Shown: positions 41,414 through 53,587 of the stretch, piece by piece
Layout: every line of letters starts with the position of its first letter
Position numbering within the stretch: position 1 is the first letter of the stretch
Made by a program: the position numbers and the translations under genes
The notes under the pieces: model-generated
What the model was told of the DNA's origin: nothing
The model's database searches: none
What the model saw: only the letters and a program-made list of their open reading frames with translations
Assembly: GCA_036172665.1 (NCBI GenBank)
Contig: CM069871.1
Span: 57,348,713-57,412,712, forward strand
Source of the DNA: Prosopocoilus inquinatus
Taxonomy: Eukaryota; Arthropoda; Insecta; Coleoptera; Lucanidae
Direction: 5' to 3'
DNA length: 64,000 nucleotides

Positions 41414-42707
41414 AACAGCAGGTTTGGAAAGTTTAAAAAAAACTGCTTAAAACAAAGTGTTTAAAACATGTTTAAAACTCCGAATTAAAAACATACATAC
41501 ATTTTTTTGTAAATTTAAGCTAAAAAAGAACACTTTTGGTATAAGTGCTTTATTTTTGTTTTAAACATATTTTTTTCGCTGTTTTAAATTATTTTTTTTT
41601 AGTTTTAAGCTTTTTTGCAACGTAATACTGTATGTGTGTGTTTCACTCACAGATTAATTTTAATCTTTAGTTTATTCCCATATCAATTGTTTTAATAATA
41701 GTAAACAATGCGTGGCTGAGCTAATGACGTGATGACCACACTGTAGCTCTGATTGGAACTAAATTTGAATTGCATTAGATTGATTATAATAAGTTCATTA
41801 ATTATTACTGATCACTAGAATAATACTTATATTGTAAAATTTTAAAATACCTTTTCAATATTTAACCTTTTATTATTACATTAAGTTTTGAAACATACTG
41901 GATGGTCCGCTTCCCTGTTCATACAATGGGCTATGGGATGAGTTATTATGTAGCAAACTGGCTTCAATTTGTCAATCCTATTGCAATGTTAGGTCAAACA
42001 ACGATCGTAGGATATCGCTGTTTAAATTATTTATAACGTTATAGTTTCATTTGTCTTCAATGAATTTCTACCGTGTGTCCTAAGGCCATTTATTCGATAA
42101 TTTTCAGACATATACCTACCGGACTTTCGGTTTCAACTTTGTTATTTTAAATGGAACACCCTACATAATTTTACATATTTGGAATTTTTGTTTTCTAATC
42201 GTGAAAGCCACGAGTCATGTATTTTAGTTCTAATGCGATCAAGTAATTTGAAAAAATTACTTCTATGGATTGTATTTGATTTTAGTTTTTATTGGGAATG
42301 TCTTTCTCAATATGTTGATACCAAATACTTCATACTTTCTTTGAAAATCGTTTAAAACACCGCGACCGTAGATACTAAATAAATCAAGCTATGCCTTAAA
42401 TGATTTAAATTATTATCAAAGTACATACATTATTTTTTTTTTAATTAGAGATCGAATTTGAATAAATTCTTTGTATCTTTTCACACAAATATCAAATAGT
42501 AATAATAATAATAATATGTACCTTTTTATGTGAGCTATAAAGGCAATTTAAACTTTTACAAGTGTTTTAAACAACTGTCTTTTTTTGTTTAAAACATGTT
42601 TAATTTACGCTCAATTTTAAACATGTTTTAAACAAAGACAAAACTGTTTAAAACAAAAAAAGTTTTGTTCTTTAAAAAAAAAAAAACAGTTATTTTTCCA
42701 ACCCCGA
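41414..42707. mobile_element. Candidate degenerate inverted-repeat element
   Basis: CAGCAGGTTTGGAAAGTTTA with AACTGCTTAAAAC and AAACATGTTTAAAA at the left faces AAACATGTTTTAAAC and CAGTTATTTTTCCAACCCCG at the right. It spans about 1.3 kb and includes a dispersed-repeat copy at 41945-42040. Ends are imperfect and no coding segment remains, so limits are approximate. Confidence 0.45.
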
Positions 42708-44800: not shown

Positions 44801-45734
44801 AAATATGAAGTAAATATTACATTATGGTAATATAATATAATCGTAATATTACATTAAAAACAGTACAAAAGAAAGGATTAATAAAGTATCTTGCAATTTT
44901 CTTCTTATTGCTTTTTAAAATGCAACATAATCGATGACCTATCATAATTTTTTTCCATCGAATTTTAATTTATCAAAATCGTAGACATAGTATACTTTTA
45001 TACATCAGAATTGTTTTGCATAGAATCTAATTAAATTATACATAGGCTTGACTGTTAGTCGCAGTTTAACCAGTTTGTTCTCTAAACAATTATAACACCA
45101 AAAACAATTTTGCCAGTAATATAATTAACATCGTCGCATTAATGAAATTAATGAATAAATATTTACCAATAGGATTACAGGTAATTCGTCTATGAATCAT
45201 GTTTAGCTTGGAATATCTGCTAAAAAAAAGTTTAATACAGAAATTTTATTTATTTCTTACGAGTTCCATTTATCGCAACAACAAAGATATTTTATTTGCG
45301 GCCAATATTATTTCTAAATAAAAATGTCCTTGACATGTACGTACGCATGCTGAAGATAAAGTAATCTTTAGTAGCGATTAAAAATTGTTATTGAAGTTAT
45401 ATTTGCAGCTAGAAAAATTGATTAGCAACTTAAAACTAATGCGATGTATACATGAAATTGTCGAGAATCGCAAGTGCACATCAATAATCATTACACCTAA
45501 ATTTTATTATTAACTTAACCTTTAAATTATGCATTTGAAATTGATATGAGACATTTTTATAAATACCGAGGATTTGCTATACCTACGTCCGAAAGTTTCA
45601 GGATAAATAATAAAAATCTTTATTATTATTATTATTGTTATTGCCCGTAATTTAGAGTTAGAAGAACTATTTTGAAATATCTTGGCAGATATTAAAACCA
45701 AATATTTGATCAGGAGTAATTAATTTCAGTGCTA
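44801..45734. other. Gene-free region
   Basis: AT-rich with an ATT microsatellite near 45620. No exon seen; parts may be retrotransposon remnant continuing from 44800. Confidence 0.35.
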
Positions 45735-46356
45735 AAGCCTCGGTTTCCTAGAATAACGGCACCGTAATATAGCGGCCCTAATATGTAATATTAATAATAA
45801 TATGTATTTTGGTGACCTCTAATTTCCTAAATATGTTAGTAACAAAAGATTTTGTTGTAAATCGTTTTTGATTGCAGTGAAAACCTCGAGCAGCCTCTGT
45901 ACAGCTGTTTCAGCCCTGCTTGGGACTTCGTTAGCAGAGACGTAGCTCGACATTCCAACTGCAAACAAAAACGACTTGTCCAATTTATTCGCAATTGCGA
46001 TGTAAGAGTGATGAATAGGTTAAACAGCGACATCTTACGATCGGCTTTTGACATTATGCTTTGACAGCAAGCATGGCCGCCTTGCATGGAGGACTTATTA
46101 GTAGCAAATCCGCTTCAATTTGTCTATCCTACTGCAATATCAGGTCAAAAAGCGATCGTAAGATGTCGCTGTTTTATCTATTTGTAACGTCAAATCGAAA
46201 TGCACCATTATGAAATATATGAAATAAATACATATAGTCTCCTTTTCTTACTTACTTTACGTCAATGTATGTCATTTTTCAACGCTACCTGACGTCATTT
46301 ATCGTCACATTATGGCCGCCATATTACGGTACCGTTATCCTAGGAAACCGAGGCTT
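45735..46356. mobile_element. Inverted-repeat element containing a dispersed repeat
   Basis: AAGCCTCGGTTTCCTAGAAT with AACGGCACCGTAATA is mirrored by TATTACGGTACCGTTATCCT with AGGAAACCGAGGCTT. Between the arms (45836-46190) lies a dispersed-repeat copy, itself with inverted halves (AAACAGCGACATCTTACGAT and ATCGTAAGATGTCGCTGTTT). The Harbinger element begins at its right margin. Non-coding. Confidence 0.7.
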
Positions 46357-46637
46357 ATGGCTGGTTTACATGAGCAAGTAAATTGTCGCAATTGACTATC
46401 TGAGAGTACTATCCAGCAGTATTTGCTTGTATAAACGGTCGCCGAGAGTACTCTCACGGCAAGTTTTATAATTTGCGCCAGCAAGTCAGAACTTGCTCGT
46501 CTAAACGTATTGCTAAAGCGCTCTAGCAATTAGCTATTTATTTCAAATCAGTCTGGAAGTTATGACGGAAAGTTTTCAATTAGCGTGCAAGTTGACTTTT
46601 AATTTTTTATAATCATAGATAATGAACAGTTACAAAA

Positions 46638-48480
46638 ATGGATGTTGATTAAAATTCTAATAATAAACGATCCTGGTCAAAAGCTGAAACGTTTGCTTTG
46701 ATCGAAATGTACGAACAATTCCCCGAATTGTGGAATATCAAATCCAAAATTTATAGGGACAGAGTCAAGAAAGACAAAGCCCTTAAAATAATTGCAGAAA
46801 AATTTCAAACTACAAATGGAGAAATTCAGAGAAAGCTACATAATTTAAGAACACAAGAAAATCAGGAATTTAAAAAAATTCAAAAACGAAAAACCGGCAC
46901 AGGGACGGACGAAATATACAAAAGCACATGGGACTATTTTGAAGCGCTCAAGTTTCTTGTTAGTGATATTACTACAACAGAAACCGAGGATAATTTGGTA
47001 AGTAAAAAACTTATTTAAAATTTAAATGTTGTTTAATATTTTCAATAATTGGTATACAAAATTTAAATATGCTTGTATTGCCATGGAACTTCCCCTTCTG
47101 GTGAAACAAAATAATCGCGAAATTCCTCTCTGATTTCTTTAGCAGTAGCAGAGTAATTGTGCGCGTTGTGATCTTGCAAAGCTAGCATATTTACTTTAGG
47201 GAGCTCTTCATTACGCCAACTTCCAGCTACAACTCCTCTGTCATCCTCTGCGTCAAATGTTCCTGGTGGTGCATAAATGCGTGTTGAAGACTCCCTGGAC
47301 ATTAGAAAATTATGGAGCATGCATATGGTTTTCACGATAAGAGTAACTTTTGCTGGTAATAGATTTATAGGTTTTCTTAGAATTCTAAATCGGTTGGCCA
47401 TAATGCCAAATACGTTTTCGACTATACGTCTTGCCCTTGAAAGCCGATAGTTAAATACACGATGAACACCTGGCTGGTTTCTGAACGGATAAGGTTTCAT
47501 TAAATAAGGCTTCAAAGCAAAAGCATCATTCGCCACGACTACATATGGCACTTTCTTGGTACGCCCAGGTAATGGTTCTGAGTTCGGCAAACGCAATGAG
47601 TTTTCCTCCAGAGCTGATGACAGGGCACAATCATTAAATACCCCTCCATCGGATACCCTTCCGTTGCTTCCAATATTAGCATAAATAATTTTATATTGTG
47701 CATCAACAAGTGCCATTAGAACTATACTATATGTACCTTTGTAGTTATAGTAATGACTCCCACTGTCTGGTGGTGCTTGCATGGTTATGTGCTTGCCATC
47801 TAACGCTCCCACACAGTGTGGGAAGTTCCATCGCTCTTCAAATTGCTTTGCGTGTAGTAGCCATTCTTCTTCTGTAGTGGGTACCTAGAAATCATGTTTT
47901 AAAATTTTAGGTTGGACCAGATAATAGTGAAGGCAATAATGATCTAAGTGCTAAATCACCAAACTCAGAAAAAAAAGCAAAGAAGAGAAAGTCTAATTAT
48001 AATGATAATGAGGATAGAGTTTTAAAAAAAGCAATGGATGAATTGAATAAACCACATCATGAGTTTCAAATATTTGGAGACTATATAGCAGCAGAGCTTA
48101 GGTCTATGAAATCCGAACCAAATAGACGCCGTTTGAAAAGAAAAATTCAACAGGCTTTATTAGAAATATTCGAGCTTGACGATAATGATCGGTGCGACTC
48201 ACGCCAATCGTTGCAATCACAAACATCATCCAGTCAGTCAACATATTTTGAAGAAGCATCCCACCATCAACAATTTACAGATTTGCAAGTCCTTCACAAC
48301 AAGAACCAACCATCTACGTCTGTATACTTGCTTTCTCCACAAACAGGTAATTTTCTGAAAGTAAAATTATAAGGAGATTTACCTTAAAATATTTTTTTTG
48401 TAGAACTGCAGCCAGAGCCTTGCAGCATTCAACAACTATCGCTGCAATCGTACATACAGGGATTCGAAACAGATACATAA
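46638..48480 (+). CDS. MADF/BESS accessory protein of the Harbinger element
   Basis: Modelled exons are 46638-46997, 47911-48346 and 48404-48480, with introns GTAAGT...TTTTAG (913 bp) and GTAATT...TTGTAG (57 bp); phases agree. Exon 1 encodes a MADF domain (WSKAETFALIEMYEQFPELW, then a KALKIIAEKF helix). Exon 2 has a nuclear-signal-like EKKAKKRKSN and a BESS-like FGDYIAAELRSMK / RRRLKRKIQQALLEI block. Exon 3 ends GFETDT. Accessory Myb/MADF proteins of this superfamily bind element DNA and help transposase enter the nucleus. The ATG at 46638 is followed by an in-frame TAA at codon 5; the next in-frame ATG (46707) would remove the first MADF helix. This copy may thus be impaired unless an unseen upstream exon is used. 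Without the second splice it would end at 48372. Confidence 0.8.
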
Positions 48481-48936
48481 GAGAATGATACGAGTCACCT
48501 GCACATAAAAAAACAAAATTTTTTTTACACAAGTGGGGTCGAGAAGAAACAATTTTTTATTTATCTTTATCTAGAATTATGTGTTTTAGTTTATATGACA
48601 TAAAATAAACTTACCTGAAGCCAAAAACCTTAGTGTTAAAGCTAACCTTTCCTGTGGTTTAATAGACTCGCGCATATTGGTATCCACTTTCATTATTCTA
48701 TCATGAATTAAACTTAATAGTAAATTAAAATCTTCCTCTGACATGCGCAAAAAATTTTTGAACTGTTTAGGATCTTCATTTCTAAGTTCTTGTAGTAACT
48801 GTGCATGAGCACCAAGAGTTGCTCTTCGGGCAATCCAATTTCTTACCCATATGCGCTTCTTCTTGATAATCCTTCTTTTTCTAGTTATTATTAATGCCAC
48901 AGCAACAGCTGCTGCAAGTCTTTTTGTGCGTGACAT
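47063..48936 (-). CDS. HARBI1-like PIF/Harbinger transposase, three exons
   Basis: Exons 48936-48615, 48498-48383 and 47884-47063 splice in phase to 420 codons including the stop (419 aa). The start is MSRTKRLAAAVAVALI. The joins restore family sequence: ...FLASG|DSYHSLMYLFRIP and KKYFK|VPTTEEEWLLHA. The DDE nuclease follows: CVGALDGKHITM (first Asp), VVANDAFALKPYL (second Asp) and RRIVENVFGIMANRFRIL (Glu). Length and order match full HARBI1-type transposases, with no stop or frameshift. It cuts the element at its TIRs and inserts at TWA targets. Exon 3 lies inside the antisense accessory gene's first intron, and exon 2 overlaps that gene's last exon. Confidence 0.9.
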
Positions 48937-49182
48937 ATCTACACCTGCACGCAAACCTAGTGTGGCAAGCAAAAATCACGGTGCAGATCTTGTTGAAACA
49001 CTTCAACATCTTGTTGAAAACTTTACCGTGTAAACATCAGTATAATTACTTGCTGGACAGTACTCTCCAGATAGGATTTTCCGACATTATTTACTCATAT
49101 TTTTGCTCTTCGTGTAAACGATTGCGCAAGTTACTATCGGAAGTACTGTCGCAAGTTGCTTTCACGTGTAAACCAGCCATTA

Positions 49183-50036
49183 AGGGGGTGCGCAACTTTC
49201 TTTAAAGTTTCTCCTGCGGGGCGACGGTAAGGGGTGAGGAACACTGGAGGGCGTGGTCTTGACCGACCAAAATGTGACGAGAAGCTAGATAGAAATATTC
49301 CATAAATAGAATTTTGTGATGTCACGCTAGGAGTGGGGTTGCGCCAATGCGTAGACCGAGAAATATTTTCAATTCCAAGATAAATACTTAATGTATGGCA
49401 AACTACTTTGGAATTAGACGTATGGACGTATAATAACACATACATAACCCATACCTGTATTAATTTAAACAATAAATAACAAGTAATTTAAATATAATGT
49501 TGACAATCTTATACCACAGAATACACAAAAGGCAAACTCTCAAATGGCGGTAAAGATTGCGCATCCAGATGGGCAGATGAATCGGCTATGTCTACGGTTA
49601 GATTTGATTGGCCCGGCATTTTTTGTATGCAATAGTTTGAGATTATCAAATTTTGATTGCCTTCTACTTAGTCTAAAAACTCTTATCTTTCGATTCGATT
49701 TTTACTAAAAGCCGTAGGTATCAAGTTGTCGCACATATAGCGCGGCGAAGAATATTTCTTTTGCTGTATTGTTATGAGAGTACGCACACTGTTGCGACCC
49801 GGGGCGAACCGCGGCGCCGCTATACCCAGCTAACGAATTCTTGTTTGTATTTAGTTGATTTAAAATTTCTGAACGTTGTAGTTTTAGATCGACTAATCAC
49901 GAATAGAGCAAATTTGTGTCAGTCGTAGATGACAGTTCATATTACAGCTACTCAGCAAAAGTTTTAGTATCGTTAAATTTACGTCAAGAAAAGTGTTTTG
50001 GCGGCGACAGTAAATGAATTAGATAACCATATGTAA
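49183..50036. other. Gene-free region
   Basis: No exon recognised. The first ~150 bp are GC-richer (CTCCTGCGGGGCGACGG) than the surroundings, and may belong to an older repeat into which the Harbinger element inserted. Confidence 0.35.
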
Positions 50037-50901
50037 AGGTGCGTTTAGACTTGAGCACGCACGCACTGATCCTCCGCGAACGCTCAAGTGTAAACGGCTA
50101 TGCGCGCACGCTCACGTTGTGTTTTCCTGTGCGCGAACAGCTGCGAGCTCGAATAGCCGTAAATATGATCCCCTTTGGTGCATTTAGATGAGCACACACG
50201 CACTGATCCACCGCGAATGTTCAAGTGTATACATCTATGCGCGCACGCACATCATACGCGAATAGCTGGCAGCGCGATCCGCTTGGTGTCGGTCTCGGGT
50301 ACGTGCTCAAAGGAATTAATGAATGCGTAGTTTGAACGAGAAAAAAGTCGCATATTGAAAGCCACGCGACACAGCTCTCGTAGAAAAGGTTTCTGAATTT
50401 TCAGTTAGCCATGGAATAGACTAATGAAACAGCTTTGTTGCTTTGCAAGATTATAAAAAACTGCCTATTTTATGGAATGTGAAGCACGCAAAATATTATT
50501 TTTAAAAAATGACCTACCAGGAGCTAGTGAACAAATTAAATATTGAAAATTTAGGCAGTGCGGAAGCACAAAAAAAGATAAAATGTTTCTTGGAGCGGTT
50601 TTAGTTATTGTAGTAAAATTTTTGAATTACTTATGACAACTCTCTGACACTAAATAATAAGTAGAGTAATTTATTTTGTCTCTTATAAAAAGTAGGCGCT
50701 TACCAGGAAAGTCGACGTCTCGTTCGAAATTCTTTTTTTAATTAAAATATGAATCACAATTACACAGCCGCTGCTGTTTTGTCGTCCATTGTGTGCGCGA
50801 ACAACTGGATCAGCCCATGCGCCAGAAAATAAATGCTCGTGAGCGCGAACGAATGCCGTGCGCGTATACTCAGCTCGTTGTGCTCAAGTCTAAACGCACC
50901 T
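50037..50901. mobile_element. Decayed Harbinger-like element
   Basis: A 22-bp inverted repeat starting AGGTGCGTTTAGACTTGAGC is perfect at both ends. Subterminal direct repeats (ACTGATCCTCCGCGAA..., ACTGATCCACCGCGAA..., each followed by TATGCGCGCACG) recur at 50072 and 50199. A decayed MADF frame lies inside. Target duplication is not clear (TAA left, TAT right). TIR style, subterminal repeats and MADF remnant place it near PIF/Harbinger. Confidence 0.65.
50428..50604 (+). pseudogene. MADF-domain fragment in the decayed element
   Basis: The frame reads VALQDYKKLPILWNVKHAKY, hits a TAA at 50503-50505, then continues KMTYQELVNKL and AQKKIKCFLERF to a stop. LWNVKH-x-Y followed by a basic helix is typical of MADF domains. 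The first part and any BESS motif are missing. It is a relative of, not a copy of, the accessory gene at 46638. Confidence 0.6.
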
Positions 50902-52679
50902 TATTTTCGGGCGCATACATGTTCCCATGGCCAACCATATTAACAATTTCAATGAAAAACTGCCGAATATCCGTAATTTTTTTAAATAAACATATCGAAT
51001 GATACATCGCTGGAAAGGTAATTTTTTTGCAATCATGGCCTACTAGGGTTTCCATTAAAAAACCGAACTTTATGTCATAACTCGAAAATAGGAATTTATA
51101 TGGAAAATTTAGTTCGACTAATTAATTAAGAACATAATTCAGTACAACTTTTGCCTTTACAACTTTTCTCTAAAATCAAGAATAACCGAGCTATTTGCAT
51201 TTAACGAAATTATAGAAAATCAGTTTTTTCGAAATATCTAGCCAACCATGAACTTTAAATAAGAAACAAAAACCATATTAAACTGACTACCTAAAACTAC
51301 AAATCTTTCCTCATTTAACCGTCTCTCTAACTCTGCTAGTTTCCAAGATCCTCGTGCTAAACATTGAAAAAACTCACCCTTTGTATTAAAATAATTAAAT
51401 TAATGACGCGCCTCTTATTCTGGTAATGTTTATTTTATATTGAATTACTTAATTGATTATTAGAAATAAAAGTGCTTAAAATTCTTAGCAGAACATAGCA
51501 TGAAGCTAGGAGTTAACAAAAAGAACAATTATATTAATAAGTGCGAATTGTAAAATTTCATTTCGGGTTTGAAATGTATTCTAAAACTGTCAAGTTTAGT
51601 CAACTGGTTAAAACCGGTTAAAACTTACCATGGGGCGGAGCTAGCACGGTTGTTAATTCATTTCAAATACTGCGCCATCTGTTCGAAAAGAATGGAATTT
51701 AAAATTTTATTTATTAAATAACTGGTTTTCTAACAATTTTTTTACTTTTCTGACTTTACTAAATTAAACTATAACATAAATTACATGACTGTAAAGAAAG
51801 GTTTTTTCATATTTTTCAAAGTAACTTTGAATATTTACAGTTTCAAATATAGTGTTCAATACAAATATTATTTATACAAAAATATAAAGTAAATTGTCGA
51901 TTCTAAGTCTTTAGCGCCATAAATAAAGGGTTTAGTAATGCGTATGTCAAATTTCAAAAGAATAGGTGCATTTTTCACGGAAATATTTAATTTCTACGCA
52001 CTATTGAATTAGCAATACTCTGGTATATGTCGCGCTCCCCCTTAAGCGAAACAATTTCGTAGACATATCTAAATGATTTTTTATCTTGTACTAGTATATT
52101 CTAGATTGGGTAAAGCAAGCGAAGATCAATGACGGCGATCTTCAAAAAGAAACTTTTCTGATGTGCATATAATACTTCTTGAAGGGTGGGATGAAGAAAT
52201 CGAGTTTGCTCTTGTAGACTTTACGAGAAAGTAGCTACTGTTAGCTGCTTTTCTTTTATCCAGTTTTCAGATGACTTCACCCAACACCGTGTTCAATAAC
52301 CAGCCTGAGTCACCGCGTAGGAATATCAGACCTCAGACCTATTATCCAGTTTCTGTGGACTGCCTGTTAAGCCATGAAAATCTAAGTGCTCCGCTTGCTA
52401 ATAAGGGCGGAAAAATAACTTAAAATGGTGAATTTCTATACTGGACCTCATTTCACATTAATCAATTTTGAAATAGAGGTTTCTCCTAGTAATGAATCAG
52501 GCCTACATGAAGTGGGTATTACCTCACCTCTCTATTCGTTCCTTTTCACAACAGCTGAATAAAATGTCAAAATTTTACCTCTCCTTTTACTATCTTCGTG
52601 AGCTAGTTTTTCCTGCCTTTCTTGAAATTATGTCACCTTACTTAAATAAATTGTAAATAGAAATCAACCATTACTTTTA
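50902..52679. other. Gene-free region
   Basis: Long AT-rich stretch without recognisable exons, paired element ends or tandem repeats. Confidence 0.35.
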
Positions 52680-52950
52680 TAAATAGCTAAAACGGTGACA
52701 TCCTACGATCGCTTTTTGGCCTCACATTGCATTAGGTTAGACAAATTGAAGCCAGCTTGCTACATAATAAGTCATCTCATGCAAGGCGGTAATGCTTGCG
52801 AATATCCTCGGTCGAATCATTTTGGTTTGCAGTGGAACTCTCGAGGTACGTTTCTGCTGATAAAGCCCCAATAGGGATAAAACAGGTGTACAGAGGCTGC
52901 TCTAGGGATTCACTGCAATCAAAAACGATTTGCAACAATTTTTTCTATTA
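52680..52950. repeat. Dispersed repeat, most contiguous copy
   Basis: Begins TAGCTAAAACGGTGACATCC and includes CATGCAAGGCGGTAATGC and CTGCAATCAAAAACGATTTG. Parts match 31845-32330, 45836-46190, 41945-42040 and 1-100, in varying orientation. It shows the order of segments uninterrupted. Non-coding. Confidence 0.7.
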
Positions 52951-53587
52951 CTTTTATAGTTGAAGGTAGCTCAAACATTGATAGGCCAAATTTTTAAGCT
53001 GCTGACAGGGGTAGGAAGGTAGGCAAAACTGCTACACTGCTGTAGCGAGGTTTGTCGTAAAATTTTACGAAATATTTAATGCTCGGAAACGATGCCAACT
53101 ATGCTATAATTATAGCATTTATGCTGTAACAAAACGCAGAATGCTATATAATTTGTGTTACTTTCTACTTTTGATTTTTCTCTGTGTATAAGAAGCTGCT
53201 AACTAATAGTTCTTTAGTATTGAACACTTTCTTGTGTGGGAAAGTTTTGTTTAATTTCGTTGTGAAATGGAACGCAGAACACATACTACCGAAAGAGATA
53301 ATCATTCCATTTTATACTGTCATAGAACCAACGATACCTGTTATTATTACTGCAACCGTAACCAATATTTATTTATTGGGCTTGCCGCCGGCCGTACCAT
53401 AAAAGCAGGTCAGCCGGCTAAATGTTGTTAAGGTTCATAATTGCAAAGCACGGATATTCGTACGGCCAGTGGTATTTCATTTCGTCTTAAAACTTTTCGA
53501 CACCGCTGTACCTACTCGACGCCCTTATGCAAAACAATAAAATTGATGCCCCTCTTAAAAAAATCGGAATAAATGCACGTGAATTTA
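52951..53587. other. Gene-free region
   Basis: Contains a run of ATGCTATAATTATAGCATTTATGC-like short palindromes near 53105. No gene is supported; the open frame at 53184-53402 has no recognisable motif. Confidence 0.35.

What the first reader, a model, noticed from the sequence alone, without database searches (positions are those of the whole stretch)
46638..48936. Harbinger element whose two genes interlock like a zipper on opposite strands
Seen: in-phase splice models for both strands fit together. Transposase exon 3 (47063-47884, -) lies wholly inside accessory intron 1 (46998-47910). Accessory exon 2 (47911-48346, +) lies wholly inside transposase intron 2 (47885-48382). Accessory exon 3 (48404-48480, +) lies wholly inside transposase exon 2 (48383-48498, -), so 77 bp may code on both strands. 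Known: PIF/Harbinger elements carry a transposase and a Myb/MADF gene, usually side by side. Inference: antisense transcripts could limit each other, coupling the dose of the two proteins.
Basis: partly seen in the sequence, partly recalled or inferred. Interest (0 to 1): 0.8.

Follow-up and report, generated by a model that had tools for sequence, protein, structure and literature searches.

The report
Jumping gene with interleaved opposite-strand genes
This is a 2.8-kb insect jumping gene of the Harbinger kind whose two protein genes run towards each other on opposite DNA strands with their coding pieces slotted into each other's introns; related elements in the same genome are built the same way, although in this copy one of the two genes is broken.

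Summary
The interlock is real. The element is a PIF/Harbinger transposon (46358-49179) with a TTA target duplication and inverted ends. The transposase (minus strand, 3 exons, 419 aa, open) and the MADF accessory gene (plus strand, 3 exons) have the reported borders, and their splice dinucleotides are unchanged in six genomic copies. The layout is not unique: all 41 accessory hits with a scored transposase hit within 3 kb are convergent. In 13 of 22 inspected loci (chosen, not sampled; five by open frame only) an accessory exon lies inside a transposase intron, whereas an apparently intronless transposase leaves the genes tail to tail. The 77-bp two-strand exon is a narrower feature: ends of Molorchus and Anthonomus proteins back-translate to the antisense of the same transposase motif, but in different frames. 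I read this as an inherited, tightly packed architecture whose double-coding tail is probably tolerated, not selected. Antisense dose coupling is untested. I found no description of the layout in the papers searched, but that library is incomplete.

The parts
46358..49179 (.). whole PIF/Harbinger element (2,822 bp), flanked by TTA at 46355-46357 and 49180-49182
   Evidence: sequence; five long sister copies, three of them with both ends and equal 3-bp flanks
46358..46385 (+). left terminal inverted repeat
   Evidence: inverted repeat I2 46357-46385 / 49152-49180, 83% complementary
49152..49179 (-). right terminal inverted repeat
   Evidence: inverted repeat I2
46638..46997 (+). accessory (MADF) exon 1; in this copy an in-frame TAA at 46650-46652 follows the ATG
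   Evidence: PF10545 E 1.3e-17; stop seen, absent from 4 of 4 sister copies with data
47911..48346 (+). accessory exon 2, wholly inside transposase intron 2
   Evidence: GT-AG and phase; aligns with Molorchus P0001; metagenomic P0128 found by the profile search; similarity search of the own genome
48404..48480 (+). accessory exon 3 (77 bp with stop), antisense inside transposase exon 2
   Evidence: P0001 C-terminus matches; back-translation test
48615..48936 (-). transposase exon 1
   Evidence: open frame and GTAAGT donor; tblastn of relatives
48383..48498 (-). transposase exon 2
47063..47884 (-). transposase exon 3 with the DDE_Tnp_4 domain, wholly inside accessory intron 1
   Evidence: PF13359 E 3.3e-31; D29, D120, E156 invariant in 12 of 12 aligned sequences
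46402..46455 (.). two copies of GAGAGTACTNTC in the left subterminal region; candidate protein-binding sites
   Evidence: AGTACT at 46405 and 46447; none in 46638-48936 (no shuffle control)
49054..49147 (.). the AGTACT core twice in the right subterminal region (49059, within the complement of GAGAGTACT; 49142, core only)
   Evidence: and sequence

Best explanation
It is a recently amplified PIF/Harbinger DNA transposon of an insect genome in which transposase and MADF accessory gene run towards each other and interdigitate: each gene's introns hold exons of the other, so two multi-exon genes fill 2,056 of the 2,299 bp between their start codons. Shown: the anatomy, its constancy in six copies and its recurrence in other loci of the genome. 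Inferred: the layout is inherited and kept because it packs two genes that are needed together into a short mobile unit, with splicing separating the two messages so that mature mRNAs are complementary over little more than accessory exon 3 and its untranslated tail. Also inferred, by analogy with zebrafish Harbinger: the MADF protein binds repeated subterminal sites and brings in the transposase, which cuts at the ends. In the lineage of this element the accessory gene has a third exon that reads antisense through transposase exon 2; its peptide is probably tolerated and not selected. This copy, with its accessory stop, would depend on accessory protein from sister copies.
For: Six copies keep the splice dinucleotides. 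Of 73 accessory exon-1 hits in the genome, 41 have a scored transposase hit within 3 kb and all 41 are convergent. In 13 of 22 inspected loci an accessory exon lies between transposase exons: eight by similarity (F1, F4, F5, F6, F8, L083, L084, L085; E-values for the few loci searched, weak for F4 and F5) and five by open frame only (F7, F9, L072, L075, L076). F4: 6 of 6 copies open, with splice dinucleotides, over the parts checked. The transposase intron sits at the homologous phase-0 position in F1, F4, F5 and F7. P0002, P0019 and P0128 are each listed with two contigs, the longest 2,572 bp, and the read-through tail of P0002 is antisense to the end of P0019 (reading), so an unnamed metagenome sample probably holds the same layout. 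Subterminal motifs.
Against: No RNA evidence was available. The accessory gene of this copy is interrupted. By a simple matrix the acceptor of transposase exon 3 is weak (-1.4). Exon 3 rests on one matching gene model and one model in another frame, both database annotations of unknown transcript support. The inspected F7, F8 and F9 copies carry stops, and of four F5 copies one has a broken accessory frame and two a stop in the transposase exon. Compactness as the reason for the layout is inference; other families have looser gaps (up to 257 bp). L074 shows interlocking is not obligatory. No tree was built, so one old origin is not shown.
Confidence: 0.75

Rival explanations
1. The interlock is regulatory: convergent primary transcripts pair or collide, so each gene limits the other (dose coupling), or the duplex RNA feeds small-RNA silencing and keeps the transposon self-limiting.
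For: The coding spans overlap antisense over about 1.4 kb before splicing (46638-48480 against 47063-48936). The layout recurs in several families.
Against: No expression data. Interlocking removes most complementarity from the mature messages. The recurrence is explained equally well by descent. This copy's accessory gene is broken.
Confidence: 0.15
2. Accessory exon 3 is not a real coding exon: the accessory message ends in exon 2 or in the retained intron (stop at 48372), and the two-strand reading is a gene-model artefact.
For: The antisense frames are open anyway. In F4, F5, F7, F8 and F9 the exon-2 frame runs to a stop inside the transposase intron and no matching exon 3 was recognised in F4, F5 and F8, though this does not exclude splicing before that stop, as happens in the model here. 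The Anthonomus model reads the same stretch in another frame.
Against: Two beetle gene models run into the antisense of the same transposase motif, scoring 40.5 and 37.9 against a maximum of 30.8 in 80 shuffled tails. The acceptor at 48403 follows a long T run and does not vary in six copies.
Confidence: 0.25
3. The 77 bp are selected in both frames, a true double-coding exon.
For: Twelve of the last 13 residues are identical between this element and Molorchus while the protein as a whole is 47% identical. No variant in 48383-48498 among six copies.
Against: Such identity can be a shadow of the conserved transposase motif on the other strand. The Anthonomus model keeps the exon but not the frame. 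Six copies at 98-100%, not all independent insertions, cannot show constraint over 116 bp.
Confidence: 0.08
4. The splice models are wrong and this is an ordinary pair of side-by-side genes broken by mutation.
For: The accessory stop at 46650.
Against: Homologous introns and exons in other families and a spliced relative over 99% of the accessory query.
Confidence: 0.03

Closest known systems
PIF/Harbinger insect elements and their domesticated pairs (APLG/APM, LPLG2/LPM2; DPLG7/DPM7), PMC9710019
   Same: DDE transposase plus MADF protein, short terminal repeats, 3-bp target duplication; [quoted passage not shown]
   Different: The parts read describe neighbouring genes, one pair annotated as a single transcript; they do not mention exons of one gene inside introns of the other, and 'opposite', 'overlap' and 'antisense' do not occur in its main text
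Zebrafish Harbinger3_DR (as cited in PMC9710019; original not read)
   Same: Two proteins needed; the Myb-like protein interacts with the transposase, brings it to the nucleus and binds a 9-bp subterminal motif
   Different: Its gene layout was not seen by me; here binding to the subterminal repeats is untested
Ping/Pong and plant PIF elements (recalled; PMC2836001 seen in a search listing only)
   Same: Two genes, ORF1 and transposase
   Different: Recalled as side by side; not tested here
Interleaved or nested host genes on opposite strands (recalled)
   Same: Exons of one gene within introns of another
   Different: Those are host loci; here the pair is one mobile unit, and the layout recurs in other families

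Membership tests
PIF/Harbinger superfamily | DDE_Tnp_4-type transposase with catalytic D, D, E (which residues are catalytic is recalled) | tested here: met
   PF13359 E 3.3e-31; D29, D120, E156 invariant in 12 of 12
PIF/Harbinger superfamily | second gene with Myb/SANT/MADF domain | tested here: met
   PF10545 E 1.3e-17; start of the frame broken in this copy
PIF/Harbinger superfamily | 3-bp target-site duplication | tested here: met
   TTA/TTA here and in L040, TAT/TAT in L041, TAA/TAA in L042; L043 and L044 lack the left end
PIF/Harbinger superfamily | short terminal inverted repeats | tested here: met
   29 nt including one base of the target site, 83% complementary
PIF/Harbinger superfamily | both proteins needed for movement | not testable with these tools
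   needs a transposition assay
Reciprocally interleaved convergent gene pair | exons of each gene lie in introns of the other, opposite strands | tested here: met
   sequence models constant in six copies; accessory exon inside a transposase intron in 13 of 22 chosen loci; no transcripts
Double-coding exon | selection on both reading frames | tested here: inconclusive
   DNA of diverged copies with exon 3 not available

The most novel reading that the evidence does not exclude
Interleaving is an ancient, actively kept design of one Harbinger lineage: two genes zipped so tightly that neither can be lost, captured or reshuffled by deletion or recombination without breaking the other, and whose convergent primary transcripts form a built-in brake on transposition. 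In the lineage of this element the zip has tightened until the accessory terminal exon and part of a transposase exon are the same DNA.
Probability: 0.15. Interest if true: 0.8.

Novelty: new variant of a known kind. Interest (0 to 1): 0.5.

Why it matters
PIF/Harbinger elements are unusual DNA transposons because they need two proteins, and both have repeatedly become host genes together. Interleaved exons would explain why the two genes travel as a unit, would make the accessory gene easy to miss or mis-annotate, and give natural copies in which antisense overlap and splicing between two genes can be studied.

Tried and rejected
Viral contigs were scanned with the transposase exon and with a 12-sequence alignment: no relative. 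Prokaryote contigs gave one insect-like contig in a bacterial bin, L067, whose transposase aligns from residue 5 to 233 without an intron and then goes on in another frame; no accessory gene was recognised there, so it does not bear on interlocking. Paper searches for opposite, complementary or antisense two-gene layouts listed nothing that from title and abstract describes it; several listings were capped and most subscription papers are not held.

Considered and dropped: chance fit of splice sites (relatives refute it); testing selection on exon 3 from the six copies (too similar; L043 and L044 share a right flank, so they are not independent); calling the accessory C-terminal block a BESS motif (recalled resemblance; no such Pfam match at E up to 1 for exon 2 here, P0001, P0124 or P0128). 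The antisense-compatibility test took the F1 tail and 35 accessory proteins; F1, P0001 and P0124 exceeded the shuffled maximum of 30.8 clearly, P0146 (31.2) marginally and in another register. It reports the best of many registers, with 80 shuffles of two tails as control. Of the 22 loci, the ten F loci came from accessory or transposase hits, L072-L078 from transposase hits, and L083-L087 from accessory exon-2 hits, so the last five favour interlocking; 13 of 22 is not a frequency. Splice borders of F8 and F9 could not be settled. F2, F10 and L087 could not be judged; F3, L073, L078 and L086 only in part; L074 and L077 are not interlocked (in L077 the transposase N-terminal part was not located; their accessory C-terminal block is by eye, from an open frame).

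Full report
What was checked. The sequence of 45001-51000 and its frames were read on both strands. Inverted repeats of 29 nt, 83% complementary, close a unit at 46358-49179, flanked by TTA on both sides. Joined exons 48936-48615, 48498-48383 and 47884-47063 on the minus strand give an open transposase of 419 residues; both introns are GT...AG. The last exon holds DDE_Tnp_4 (E 3.3e-31), and accessory exon 1 holds MADF_DNA_bdg (E 1.3e-17). Accessory exons 46653-46997, 47911-48346 and 48404-48480 join in phase to a stop. So the geometry is right, but this copy's accessory protein is probably not made as drawn.

Sister copies. The window lies in a 650-Mb genome. A DNA search returned 20 matches: the window copy, five long copies at 98-99%, and fragments. 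In the six-copy alignment no splice dinucleotide varies, 48383-48498 has no variant, and the accessory stop is private to the window copy: 4 of 4 others with sequence there read a sense codon, the sixth copy being truncated. L043 and L044 lack the left end and share a right flank, so the six copies are not six independent insertions. L041 and L042 share deletions in transposase exon 3 but sit in different sites with different 3-bp duplications (TAT, TAA), so a copy with a damaged transposase has moved, presumably helped in trans.

Relatives in databases. The accessory protein has few close relatives: 3 among 576 candidates, one of them a Molorchus minor protein aligned over 99% of the query and ending in the exon-3 peptide. 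A profile search gave 35 among 7,991 scored candidates. The transposase had 3,262 matches among 7,988 scored candidates, 120 listed. Three metagenomic proteins, P0002, P0019 and P0128, are each listed with two contigs, the longest of 2,572 bp. The read-through tail of P0002 is antisense to the end of P0019 (reading). That the three lie on one contig is inferred from the equal lengths; if so, that element has the same order of pieces.

The layout is general. The genome search with accessory exon 1 gave 73 hits, and that with transposase exon 3 scored 141 of 734 candidates. Of the 73 accessory hits, 41 have a scored transposase hit within 3 kb and all 41 are convergent, none divergent or in the same direction; two elements contribute two split hits each. 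An earlier count with a Pfam-based list (150 of 968 candidates scored) gave 19 of 19 pairs. I then inspected 22 loci chosen from these searches and from the accessory exon-2 search: ten, seven, five. In 13 an accessory exon lies between transposase exons. Eight rest on similarity, with E-values for the small sets of loci searched (F1; F4 1e-3; F5 6e-4; F6 1.8e-7; F8 2.6e-9; L083 3e-30; L084 1e-28; L085 2e-9), and five on an open frame in the transposase intron (F7, F9, L072, L075, L076). Four are partial (F3, L073, L078, L086), three cannot be judged (F2, F10, L087), and two are not interlocked (L074, L077). In L074 the transposase aligns in one piece and an open frame resembling an accessory C-terminal block lies to its left: plain tail-to-tail neighbours. 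Family limits were set by eye; I count about ten families among the 13. In F1, F4, F5 and F7 the transposase intron is at the homologous place, phase 0, just before (V/F/I)P(T/N), with gaps between opposite exons of 26-77 bp on one side and 36-257 bp on the other (the F5 value, 247, comes from a copy whose accessory frame stops where two sister copies read on). F4 is the cleanest other case: six of six copies keep both frames open and the splice dinucleotides over the parts checked. Of four F5 copies all keep the dinucleotides, but L035 has a broken accessory frame and L036 and L037 one stop each in the transposase exon; the F7, F8 and F9 copies carry stops.

The 77-bp two-strand exon. Two of the three plus frames are open right through the 77 bp and the third reaches its stop at the very end, so openness carries little weight. 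A back-translation test asked whether the tails of accessory proteins can be antisense to the profile of transposase exon 2. This element scored 37.7, Molorchus 40.5 and Anthonomus 37.9, against at most 30.8 in 80 shuffled tails; the other 33 of 35 relatives scored 31.2 or less. Molorchus and this element share frame and register; Anthonomus reads the same stretch in another frame. F8 has the same two transposase introns, but in the frame used here its antisense carries a stop just before the corresponding peptide and no exon 3 was recognised. In F4, F5, F7, F8 and F9 the exon-2 frame runs to a stop inside the transposase intron; since the frame here does so too beyond its donor, this is only weak evidence that they lack exon 3. 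The overlap exon is therefore probably genuine in this lineage, but its peptide is not conserved in frame, and its similarity between this element and Molorchus can be a shadow of the transposase motif. Selection on both frames is unproven.

How it probably works. By the work on zebrafish and rice elements summarised in PMC9710019 (background section read), both proteins are needed, and the zebrafish Myb-like protein brings the transposase to the nucleus and binds a subterminal motif. This element has the palindrome AGTACT twice at each end, three of the four within GAGAGTACT or its complement, and AACTTGC five times in the ends; neither occurs in 46638-48936 (no shuffle control). They are candidates for such sites. 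A plus-strand AATAAA at 48604 lies in transposase intron 1 and a minus-strand ATTAAA at 47037 in accessory intron 1, which fits messages that overlap little once spliced; such hexamers are common and prove little. I therefore prefer inherited packing, with splicing keeping the messages apart, over antisense dose control, which nothing here tests.

Novelty. Nine answered paper searches listed no paper whose title or abstract describes interleaved Harbinger genes; several listings were capped. PMC9710019 was read in part (background section; passages) and PMC9179366 in passages. Subscription papers and Repbase notes are outside this library, so a prior description is quite possible. I rate it a new variant of a known kind.

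Noticed in passing
45738-46354: A 617-bp unit with about 49-bp inverted ends (90% identical) lies directly against the left target duplication of the Harbinger element; partial copies at 79-91% identity occur elsewhere in the window (for example 52677-52952, 1-79, 41936-42039). Probably a non-autonomous DNA transposon; the genome-wide search did not complete.
   Followed up: partly
L041 and L042 (C10:30539909-30542723 and C10:30559176-30561990): Two sister copies about 17 kb apart in opposite orientation share a 16-bp and a 1-bp deletion in transposase exon 3 yet have different 3-bp target duplications, pointing to movement helped in trans.
   Followed up: partly
L043 and L044 (C5:52162053 and C5:52036694): Two copies lacking the left end share the same right flank, so one may be a duplicate of the other.
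   Followed up: no
L046 and L047 (C5:48588717 and C5:40184018): Two copies of a deletion derivative joining element positions 314-403 to 976-1190 (93-94% identical).
   Followed up: no
46358-46637 and 48937-49179: Subterminal repeats AGTACT (4 copies) and AACTTGC (5 copies), none in the coding part; candidate binding sites.
   Followed up: partly
L067 (JAHZIU010000197.1): A contig filed under a Betaproteobacteria bin encodes an insect-like Harbinger transposase, probably contamination.
   Followed up: partly
F6 (L055+L066) and L078: In these loci an accessory exon inside, or next to, the transposase intron carries the second half of the MADF domain, so the accessory intron is elsewhere although the nesting is alike.
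   Followed up: partly
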